From Chiua virens (lineage: Eukaryota; Basidiomycota; Agaricomycetes; Boletales; Boletaceae): a stretch of 64,000 nucleotides of DNA. Position 1 is the stretch's first letter; the number at the start of each line of letters is the position of its first letter. The stretch spans positions 682,001 through 746,000 of the forward strand of contig JAHNUO010000017.1 in NCBI GenBank assembly GCA_019787685.1. Direction: 5' to 3'. The notes below the pieces were generated by a model. That model saw nothing but the letters and a program-made list of their open reading frames with translations. It was not told the origin of the DNA and made no database searches. The position numbers were made by a program, and so were the translations under genes. Below are positions 25,115 to 27,808 of this stretch, piece after piece.

Positions 25115-27808
25115 ATGAAAATGACCACCCGCTTCCCGTTCTTTCGCTCCAAAACTCCCAAAGACGGTTCTGGAGAAGCGCTCGGAGAACCCCCCGGAGA
25201 CATTCCTGCGGGATCTACTACTATGGAGATCGACGGCATCAGAGAGAAGTTCGGACGCTTCAGGATTCTTGTCATTGGCCGCGCCAATGCTGGGAAGACT
25301 ACGATACTCAAGCAGATCTGTAACTCTACGGAAGATCCAGAGATCTATGACAGAAATGGGAATAGGGTATGCTCAAACCTCATCTGTGATGACGTGGGCG
25401 CACTGATGGTCTGCGATCAGGTCGATCAAGCAGAGATCAAGGGAACCAAGGATGTGAGTTCCACAGGCACAGTTCCGTGACTGTGACCTCGTTATCAACT
25501 AACACATCTCCAGCGCGGAAAGCATAATATCGAGAATGAAGTAGTTTTTCGAAGCAACCCGAATTTCGTTTTTCACGATTCGCAGGGATTCGAAGCTGGC
25601 AGTAAGGAAGAATTCGAGAAGATGAAAGACTTTGTTTCAGAGCGTGCAAAGACAAGTTTTCTCAAGAAACGTATCCATGCCATATGGTAATCAGAGATGG
25701 CAGCATGTCCGTTGCACCAACAATGACATAATATTGAACAGGTACTGTATTCCTATGGATCAATACCATCGGGCGGTCTTGGCTTCTGAGGAAAAGTTTT
25801 TTGATGAGTGTAACACGGGAAATGGTAAGCATTCTTCGACTATAACAATTGTGTTCTCATTTTTCATGTCTGTTTGCAGTGCCTGTTATACTTGTACTCA
25901 CAAAATGTGATGCACTTCTACTGCAAGGCCTTGCAGCCTTAACACCTGAAGAGAAAGAGCTACCTCGAGAGGAAAGGCTCGTGAGGGGACATCAAAATGC
26001 TGAAAGCATGTTGAAGAAAAATACTGTATGGGAGAGGGTGCAGAGTATGAAGTATCCACCAAAAGCAAATGTGGAATTAAGGGGTATGTCACAGTATTCA
26101 TAAATTTCTTTTGGCATGACATTCAAACTGTTTTCATGCATAAAGATTTGGACAAATCAGATAAGGGATCCAAACTTCTCATTGAAAGGACTGTGAAGGC
26201 CTTAGATGAAGAAACTCTGCAAATGCTGTTTGTGACTGCACAACACACAAATGGCATGGTCTGCACTGAGTATGCTATAGAAAGGTAATTGTATGAAGTG
26301 TATGAACTTTGAAGTATACCTTGAAATTTATTATAGGGTTCTGATACCTTTCATTGATGATAAACACAGGGGGAATGATTCACTTACTGGTTCTGAACAG
26401 CATGACTTGAGGAAAGCAATTGCATTATGGTTTCCACATGTCAAGGTAAGTTTATATACAGTATGAATTAATAGCCATGTCATCCCATTTATAGAATGTA
26501 AGCACTTTGATTGTGAATAGGCTTTCAAAGAGATGCTGACCCATGCCCCTCTGACATACCCTTGTCCTCTCATTGATAGCATGTAAGTGCTCTGAGTGTG
26601 AATGGGCTTTCAGAAGGACGCTGATCCATGTCCCTCTGTCATGCTCTTGTCCTCTGATTGATAGGATGTATGTGCTCTGATTGTGAATGTGCTTTCAGAA
26701 GAGTGCTGATTCATGCCCTCTGTCTTGCTCTTCTCTTATTCATAGGGAGTAAGTGCTCTGATTGTGGAGAGGGTTTTAGAGAAATGCTGATCCATGCCCC
26801 TCTGTCTTGCCCTTGCCCTCTCATTGATAGTGTGTAAGTGCTCTGAGTGTGAATGGACTTTTAGAAGGATGCTGATCCATGCCCCTCTGTCTTTCTCCTG
26901 AAACTCCTCTCATCCATAGCAAGTAAGTCCTCTGAGTACAAATAGGTGTTCAGAATGGTTCTGATCCATGATTGTTCACCTTACCATTGTTCTCCCCTTT
27001 ATAGCTGGTAGGTGATTTTGATTGACTTTGATCCCTAAGGATACTAATCCTTCTGCATATCTTAGGATGTGAGCTTTCATACTCATCCTCAAGAGCCTGA
27101 AATCTTTTAACATTTTCTTTTCTATTCCTTTCAATCACTTACTAGGTATGACTCAATTTTTTTTAAAAAAAACCCTTATTCTTACATTTTACTTCATAGG
27201 AGGTTTGTGATATTTGTATACATCACCATCCAAATAGTGATTTCAAATTTATAGATATTGGTATCTTCCACAGTATGTTGATTCACCCTTGATGTTATTG
27301 TGTTATTTTGCTCAATTCATATTATACTTAGCTTTTAGATCCTTCAGCTATATCAGACTCCATATCATCTGAGTCTACATCCATTGTGAGTACATTGATT
27401 ACATCATTTATTCCTACCTCTCCTATTGTATGATATACTTTAGTCTTCACTGCAAAGCACTCCATGGAGTGAAGCACTTCATGCAGGAATTGGTCAGTAT
27501 CCAATGGAATCCAGTGATTACACTCATTGGTATCTGTAGGTTTTACTCTTATTCTAGAACATTCCTTCTTTCTGCACCAACAAGCTGTTGAAGACCCAAT
27601 CAGGGAGGCAGCCAAACTTTATGAATCATCTGGCACAATCAACACTGTCACAAAAGCAATCTCTGAGCTTATTCCTCAATATGACTTCAAGGATAAGGAG
27701 AAAATGAAACAGCTTATCATGGATGTCATTTATCAGAATCTGATTTGTAGGTCATCCAAGTCAGTCCTCTTGATCATCATTCTAAACATATTAAAAAATT
27801 GTAGCTGA
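25115..27808 (+). CDS. P-loop GTPase, paralogue 3 (no C2 domain)
   Basis: Starts MKMTTRFPFFRSKTPKDGSG. G1 is VIGRANAGKTTILKQI. Further exons give G3 VFHDSQGFEAGSKEEFEKMK, the joined motif RIHAIWYCIPMDQYHR, and G4 VPVILVLTKCDAL. The later exon ELR joined to DLDKSDKGSKLL (donor about 26082) leads to LFVTAQHTNGMVCTEYAIER and LRKAIALWFPHVK (ends 26445). After a repeat-filled gap, the C-terminal exon (about 27540-27745) reads FTLILEHSFFLHQQAVEDPI and SELIPQYDFKDKEKM. It corresponds in position to the C-terminal MSYIVNL exon of paralogues 1 and 2. Motifs are those of the large Agaricomycete HSR1-like GTPase family; cellular role unknown. Exons between 26446 and 27540 are uncertain: one candidate is AFKEMLTHAPLTYPCPLIDS at 26521-26582. 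The 3' half lies in a CpG desert. Confidence 0.75.

What the first reader, a model, noticed from the sequence alone, without database searches (positions are those of the whole stretch)
26446..27202. Chain of tandem intron-like units separated by exactly three bases inside a GTPase gene
Seen directly: nine consecutive segments start with a GT donor (26446, 26498, 26583, 26668, 26749, 26834, 26923, 27008, 27069) and end in TAG (26494, 26579, 26664, 26745, 26830, 26919, 27004, 27065, 27145). The gap from each acceptor to the next donor is 3 nt for the first eight junctions. The six middle units are copies of one 78-86 bp sequence with donor, branch-like CTGAT, pyrimidine tract and acceptor; the flanking ones are not obvious copies yet keep the spacing. 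If every unit were spliced, the mRNA would gain only single-codon exons and stay in frame. This is either intron multiplication by tandem duplication with splicing kept, or a region spliced recursively or as nested introns. I know of no standard feature class for it.
Basis: partly seen in the sequence, partly recalled or inferred. Interest (0 to 1): 0.9.

Follow-up and report, generated by a model that had tools for sequence, protein, structure and literature searches.

The report
Mushroom genes with one-codon exon chains
In the bolete mushroom Chiua virens, genes of a GTPase family carry a stretch in which one short intron is repeated many times with exactly one highly variable codon between copies, so that part of the protein appears to be spelled one amino acid per exon, a gene layout that our literature searches did not turn up.

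Summary
The window gene is a Chiua virens (Boletaceae) GTPase. Between a conserved exon (..WFPHVK|) and a conserved C-terminal exon it holds a chain of single-codon exons set in ~82-nt GT..TAG introns. All 21 loci read (window included) have such a chain, 9 to 59 codons long. Genome-wide the exact unit junction occurs 929 times with a 3-nt spacer and twice with any other spacer of 0-12 nt. A chain search with exon length 3 completes in 19 of 20 loci, with every other length from 0 to 9 in 0 of 20. In-frame stops are 4 in 501 repeat codons against 70 expected. Introns within an array are nearly identical while codons differ at about half of sites or more; among unit pairs with identical introns all 721 codon differences are nonsynonymous. 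Of 20 metatranscript-like proteins listed, 8 read through to the C-terminal domain with an extra segment at this place. RNA from C. virens itself was not available. What the tail does, and what makes its codons so diverse, remain inferred.

The parts
25115..26445 (+). GTPase-coding exons 1-7 (25115-25366, 25421-25453, 25514-25686, 25742-25824, 25880-26083, 26146-26284, 26337-26445) with their introns; last exon ends ..WFPHVK in phase 0
   Evidence: Open 331-aa frame; Pfam MMR_HSR1 E=3.3e-6; 100% identity over 89% of the query to Chiua virens GTP-binding protein P0001. Exon borders are our model.
26446..26494 (+). first intron of the chain, not a repeat copy
   Evidence: also a non-repeat intron in the paralogues shown
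26495..26497 (+). single-codon exon AAT (N)
26498..27004 (+). six tandem intron copies (82, 82, 78, 82, 86, 82 nt) separated by single-codon exons CAT, GAT, GGA, TGT, CAA
27005..27007 (+). single-codon exon CTG (L)
27008..27065 (+). intron, not a repeat copy; counterpart in paralogues
27066..27068 (+). single-codon exon GAT (D), also in the paralogues
27069..27199 (+). intron(s) with an AG|GT junction at 27145/27146 where paralogues carry a codon exon (GAG, CAG, CAT or AAG)
27200..27202 (+). single-codon exon GAG (E), followed by donor GTTTGT
27255..27272 (+). 18-nt exon (ILVSST)
27332..27385 (+). 54-nt exon (LLDPSAISDSISSESTSI)
27444..27492 (+). 49-nt exon (SSLQSTPWSEALHAGI..)
27540..27808 (+). 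C-terminal exon (..LILEHSFFLHQQAVEDP..) to the stop
   Evidence: a paralogue's version of this domain has 71 matches in the genome, this one among them

Best explanation
The array is a chain of spliceosomal introns with single-codon exons. The pre-mRNA is spliced intron by intron (intron definition, probably sequentially), so each unit adds one residue to a segment lying between the GTPase part and a conserved C-terminal helical domain. SHOWN by sequence: a continuous chain in 21 loci, 3-nt spacing genome-wide, stop depletion in the frame of the flanking exons, conservation of both flanks, near-identical introns with hypervariable codons. STRONGLY INFERRED: splicing and translation, from metatranscript-like proteins of other fungi. 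INFERRED: arrays grow and shrink by whole (intron+codon) units through unequal exchange, which cannot shift the frame; exchange or conversion keeps introns alike while selection for amino-acid change diversifies the codons; the segment serves as a fast-evolving recognition or interaction surface. The window gene is a short member (9 codons, NHDGCQLDE).
For: 1,654 unit junctions with at most 1 mismatch, 1,045 exact; reversed-pattern control 0. Spacer: 929 exact matches with 3 nt, 1 with 4-12, 1 with 0-2, both in one gene. Chain control: length 3 gives 19 of 20 complete, all other lengths from 0 to 9 give 0 of 20. Stops: 4 of 501 repeat codons against a shuffle mean of 70, minimum 51 in 2,000; genome-wide TAA+TGA 5, all TGA, against TAT 147. 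Within-array pairwise difference: introns 0.004-0.26, codon positions 0.40-0.87 (17 arrays). Of 950 same-array unit pairs with identical introns, 721 differ in codon: all nonsynonymous. A 59-codon chain without a stop at C24. Metatranscript-like proteins with an added segment: P0121, P0011, P0155 and five others; P0111 has one where the Pisolithus tinctorius genome model P0110 has none.
Against: No RNA from C. virens was available. The jgi/lgn contigs are judged to be transcripts only because introns are missing from one open frame; libraries, DNA and species were not seen. Of the 20 jgi/lgn proteins listed, only 8 reach the C-terminal domain and 1 more (P0111) runs in the segment to its end; the other 11 end near or before WFPH, some (P0016, P0030..WFPHFWVR) as if the next intron were retained. 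4 of 21 chains hold a stop (L042, L045, L050 TGA; L052 TAA), L041 has a 5-nt and a 2-nt exon, L039, L054 and L055 shift frame further 3', and L057 lacks the WFPH exon. Deposited models end before the array (P0001). Splice-motif conservation is weak evidence, because the rest of the intron copies is nearly as conserved. Third-base choice may partly reflect splicing or CpG loss, which weakens the selection argument.
Confidence: 0.9

Rival explanations
1. The array is one long intron that contains an expanded minisatellite; internal splice signals are inherited decoration and are skipped.
For: Deposited gene models stop before or jump over the region (P0001; P0110). The unit is a tandem repeat by any definition. 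11 of 20 jgi/lgn proteins end before or near the array.
Against: Stops in the 3-nt spacer are depleted about 17-fold in exactly the frame of the flanking exons, the spacer stays 3 nt although its bases diverge strongly, and 8 of 20 jgi/lgn proteins carry an added segment and the C-terminal domain.
Confidence: 0.05
2. A mobile intron (introner-like) inserted repeatedly between the codons of an existing contiguous exon, so the codons were never duplicated and only the introns are copies.
For: Introns in an array can be almost identical while codons differ, with no synonymous differences between units with identical introns.
Against: Random insertion should leave 6- and 9-nt exons, yet a 4-12-nt spacer occurs once against 929 with 3 nt. 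In 20 loci Gly is GGA in 84 of 84 and Ala GCA in 18 of 18 cases, unlike an ordinary exon, though other arrays (C24, C27) use GCT. Arrays change by whole units: L051/L055 differ by three and L049 repeats a five-unit block.
Confidence: 0.04
3. Codon diversity is made by a mutational process aimed at the 3-nt exons rather than by selection (the exons are still spliced and translated).
For: Codon divergence far exceeds intron divergence: L042/L043 have 36 differences over 31 matched unit introns but 19 of 31 codons mismatched.
Against: Undirected mutation would give synonymous changes and stops, and both are nearly absent. Part of the L042/L043 mismatch may come from aligning units that are not counterparts.
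Confidence: 0.12

Closest known systems
Micro-exon genes (MEGs) of schistosomes
   Same: Runs of very short, frame-neutral exons making fast-evolving proteins (definition recalled; of the papers only the listing and abstract starts were seen)
   Different: MEG exons are not single codons and not set in near-identical tandem introns (recalled); no MEG sequence was compared here
Isolated 3-nt microexons (Drosophila homothorax and troponin T, rodent NCAM)
   Same: Exon of exactly one codon (PMC7392893, passages)
   Different: Single exons, some alternatively spliced; here 9-59 in a row. Whether each is always included is unknown.
Fungal Introner-Like Elements and stwintrons
   Same: Near-identical introns multiplied in a fungal genome (PMC4457414, abstract start; PMC8469720, passages)
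   Different: Those sit at scattered gene positions or are nested; here copies lie head to tail, one codon apart, in one gene family
Microexon of Trichoderma Xlr2
   Same: Microexon in a fungus; its abstract states that functional microexons had not been described in filamentous fungi (PMC11121469, passages)
   Different: One 20-nt regulated exon

Membership tests
Boletales GTP-binding protein family (MMR_HSR1-like) | G domain and sequence similarity to annotated members | tested here: met
   Pfam PF01926 27.6 bits against cut-off 21.9; 1,162 homologues at E<=0.001, best 120 listed
Spliceosomal (U2-type) introns | GT donor, branch-like site, AG acceptor | tested here: met
   In 280 82-nt units GT and AG have majority frequency 1.00 and the bases of CTGAT 0.90-0.99. 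Not discriminating, since the whole unit is conserved; one GC-AG unit in L049.
Spliceosomal (U2-type) introns | Removed from the RNA | not testable with these tools
   No C. virens RNA; indirect support from metatranscript-like proteins
Schistosome-type micro-exon genes | Tandem frame-neutral microexons forming much of the CDS | tested here: inconclusive
   Frame-neutral chain in 21 loci, but exon size is fixed at 3 nt and most units are copies of one intron; MEG definition recalled
Introner-like elements | Same intron at many unrelated gene positions | tested here: not met
   Read by eye: the 100 of 147 places listed form 24 clusters; 21 have a GTPase hit upstream on the same strand, the other 3 a C-terminal hit downstream on the same strand
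Stwintrons / recursive splicing | A splice element interrupted by another intron, or zero-length exons between AG and GT | tested here: not met
   Zero-length chains complete in 0 of 20 loci; a 0-2-nt spacer occurs once genome-wide. One AG|GT junction in the window, 27145/27146.
Coding minisatellite | Tandem repeat translated whole as a repeat peptide | tested here: not met
   Most spacings are 85 or 86, not multiples of 3 (a minority are 84)

The most novel reading that the evidence does not exclude
The arrays are a dedicated peptide-diversification system. In a family of perhaps 65-70 GTPase genes, near-identical introns act both as splicing units and as recombination substrate, so a recognition tail is lengthened, shortened and shuffled one residue at a time without frame risk, under strong selection (or a directed process) for amino-acid change.
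Probability: 0.4. Interest if true: 0.97.

Novelty: categorically new. Interest (0 to 1): 0.93.

Why it matters
A protein segment spelled one amino acid per exon, up to 59 exons in a row, challenges views of minimum exon size and splice-site pairing and gives a natural test of intron-definition splicing. It also shows a route by which a protein can change length and order residue by residue with no frame penalty. Annotation misses it: the deposited model of the window gene ends before the array, so proteins of this family may be mis-stated. The tails are natural candidates for self/non-self or host recognition (inference).

Tried and rejected
Unspliced translation of the array: rejected because most spacings (85/86) change the frame at every unit. 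Amphipathic order of the tail codons: hydrophobic-moment test not significant in any of 20 sequences; shuffles at or above the observed value ranged from 88 to 984 of 1,000. The window (too short) and L059 (chain empty in that run) were not tested. Fold search of the P0011 model (mean pLDDT 81) gave only generic G-domain matches with query TM-scores of 0.33 or less in the 50 rows shown and no function. A first impression of one codon per amino acid was softened after one search found 27 NCT units in other arrays (C24, C27). The first chain run reached the anchor in 15 of 20 loci; rules were then relaxed (GC-AG and GTGAAG donors, variant anchors), completing L049, L052, L054 and L058, and L041 with extra exon lengths. 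One search failed (no anchor found); one search gave an empty chain for L059 because its first intron is 158 nt, allowing introns up to 170 nt, completed it. A third protein search with P0121 returned only 10 proteins. Literature: searches listed no array of single-codon exons. One search found nothing; others (25 of 518; 12 of 4,357, none with the word microexons) show only part of what matched; only open-licence papers are held.

Full report
WHAT WAS CHECKED. The window is G000:C17:682001-746000 of a 48.3-Mb genome in 136 contigs. Its gene matches, at 100% over 89% of the query, a GTP-binding protein of Chiua virens, a bolete (P0001), whose deposited 295-aa model ends before the array. The last GTPase exon ends ..CAT GTC AAG| in phase 0.

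IT IS GENOME-WIDE. The unit junction TAGNNNGTAAGTGCTCTGA occurs 1,654 times with at most one mismatch and 1,045 times exactly; the reversed-pattern control is 0. A GTPase protein search gave 265 exon-level matches and the C-terminal domain 71 (C13 and C34 are hit twice at one place). Read by eye, the 100 of 147 places listed form 24 clusters: 21 have a GTPase hit upstream on the same strand; the other three (C3:645554, C10:1121556, C17:420598) have a C-terminal hit downstream on the same strand. 17 loci were fetched because units were listed there; two more were picked from the GTPase list alone, and both had arrays (L057, L058); L059 was picked because units were known there. The sample is therefore not random.

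CHAINS ARE COMPLETE. A dynamic-programming search from the donor after ..WFPH.. to a conserved junction (GAG or CAG before GTTTG or GTTCG), allowing only 3-nt exons, completes in 19 of 20 loci (window included); the twentieth, L041, completes once other exon lengths are allowed, and then has one 5-nt and one 2-nt exon. The rules were relaxed after a first run that completed 15 of 20. L057 has no WFPH exon, so its chain was started at the preceding exon, whose phase does not fit; that gene is probably broken there. With exon lengths 0, 1, 2 and 4-9 the same search completes in 0 of 20, longest chain 3. Chains hold 9 (window) to 59 (C24) codons.

THEY ARE READ IN FRAME. In 501 codons that follow repeat-like introns (20 loci), stops number 4 (3 TGA, 1 TAA). 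Shuffling the three codon positions independently gives a mean of 70 and a minimum of 51 in 2,000 shuffles; shuffling only the third position gives 71 and 53. Genome-wide there are 5 TGA and 0 TAA at the exact junction against 147 TAT; TAG was not counted genome-wide. The stop-bearing chains are L042, L045, L050 and L052. In 17 loci where the 3' exons could be assembled (11, 6), 9 read open from the WFPH exon into the C-terminal exon (window, L043, L044, L046, L047, L048, L049, L051, L053); L042, L045 and L052 are open but for the stop in the array; L039, L041, L054 and L055 shift frame; L057 is open from the array on but has lost the WFPH exon. L050 and L058 ran off the fetched stretch, L040 failed at one exon, and L059 was not put through this step.

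CODONS VARY, INTRONS DO NOT. Within arrays, intron pairwise difference is 0.004-0.26 per site (16 of 17 arrays below 0.15), while codon positions 1, 2 and 3 differ at 0.57-0.87, 0.40-0.73 and 0.41-0.64 (three loci had too few equal-length units). L047 has 19 units with 3 intron types and 7 codons. Of 950 same-array unit pairs with identical introns, 229 have the same codon, 721 differ nonsynonymously and none synonymously; all 152 single-base differences are nonsynonymous, where about a fifth of non-stop changes would be synonymous (pairs are not independent). CpG is nearly absent from the arrays (observed/expected 0.0125, window 1.01), which would explain the lack of NNC before GT and TGA arising from CGA (L045 has TGA where L048 has CGA). 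L051 and L055 differ by three whole units and by none of 22 matched codons; L045/L048 keep 27 of 29 matched codons with 68 intron differences; L042/L043, with flanks 98% alike, mismatch at 19 of 31 codons with only 36 intron differences. The last pair suggests fast codon change, but misaligned units cannot be excluded, and the other two pairs show no such excess.

TRANSCRIPT-LIKE EVIDENCE. The searches listed 20 jgi or lgn proteins (lists capped at 120); all 20 were read. Eight join WFPH-type ends to the C-terminal domain in one frame on contigs of 1.1-1.8 kb: P0011, P0027, P0052, P0086, P0121, P0124, P0127, P0155. P0121 reads ..LWFPHTK-EKELLWLLGGLEEELLLERKRDRE-RNQLMNNLDETT..AALILEHSFFLHQQ; P0155 has YAYERDRAAAFRRAKLARFAFALARLPL and P0011 ERFEVFREFVFEFA at the same place. 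In P0127 the segment is less plainly low in complexity. P0111 (lgn) is nearly identical to the Pisolithus tinctorius genome model P0110 up to LLSWFPNTK and then carries DLPPYEQPQYQQQEGETREQWYERRYQEEQ.., absent from P0110. The other 11 end before or near WFPH, P0016 and P0030 with ..WFPHFWVR, as if the next intron were retained. For comparison the C. virens L052 chain reads RLLERQQQLEELEEELLEFEEYELHLELLLELQQLK*LDQE. That these contigs are RNA is inferred from missing introns; their DNA, libraries and species were not seen, and the presence of microexons in those species' genomes is untested.

READING. Best explanation: sequentially spliced single-codon exons that give a hypervariable tail between the G domain and a helical C-terminal domain. 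Intron units duplicate and are lost whole, so length changes do not shift the frame. Function is unknown; a recognition role is a guess from the variability and the family size. The helix-order test was negative and the structure search uninformative beyond a G domain.

NOVELTY. Single 3-nt exons are known (PMC7392893, passages); a 2024 paper says functional microexons had not been described in filamentous fungi (PMC11121469, passages); fungal intron multiplication is known in dispersed or nested form (PMC8469720, passages; PMC4457414, abstract start). Nine searches listed no chain of single-codon exons; their listings were capped.

Noticed in passing
L051 6568-7000 (G000:C4:81000-89000): A second, different tandem repeat of period 114 whose unit holds GTAAGT..CACAG, which looks like an intron plus exon sequence, 3.8 copies.
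   Followed up: no
window 27145-27146: Acceptor directly abutting a donor (AG|GT) where paralogues have a codon exon: a codon exon lost by an exact 3-nt deletion, or a zero-length exon.
   Followed up: partly
G000:C3:644600-655291: Units at C3:645380-653791 lie between a GTPase hit at 655103 and a C-terminal hit at 644600, about 10 kb: possibly a very long or interrupted array.
   Followed up: no
L058 and L059, first intron after the WFPH exon: Unusually long first introns (142 and 158 nt) with an internal AAAGGTAAG stretch (AG|GT), possibly a lost codon exon.
   Followed up: no
repeat units of L039-L058 and the window: CpG observed/expected 0.0125 in the units against 1.01 in the window, suggesting methylation-driven decay aimed at the repeats.
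   Followed up: partly
P0001, P0110: Deposited models end before the array or join across it, so family proteins may be truncated or mis-joined in databases.
   Followed up: partly
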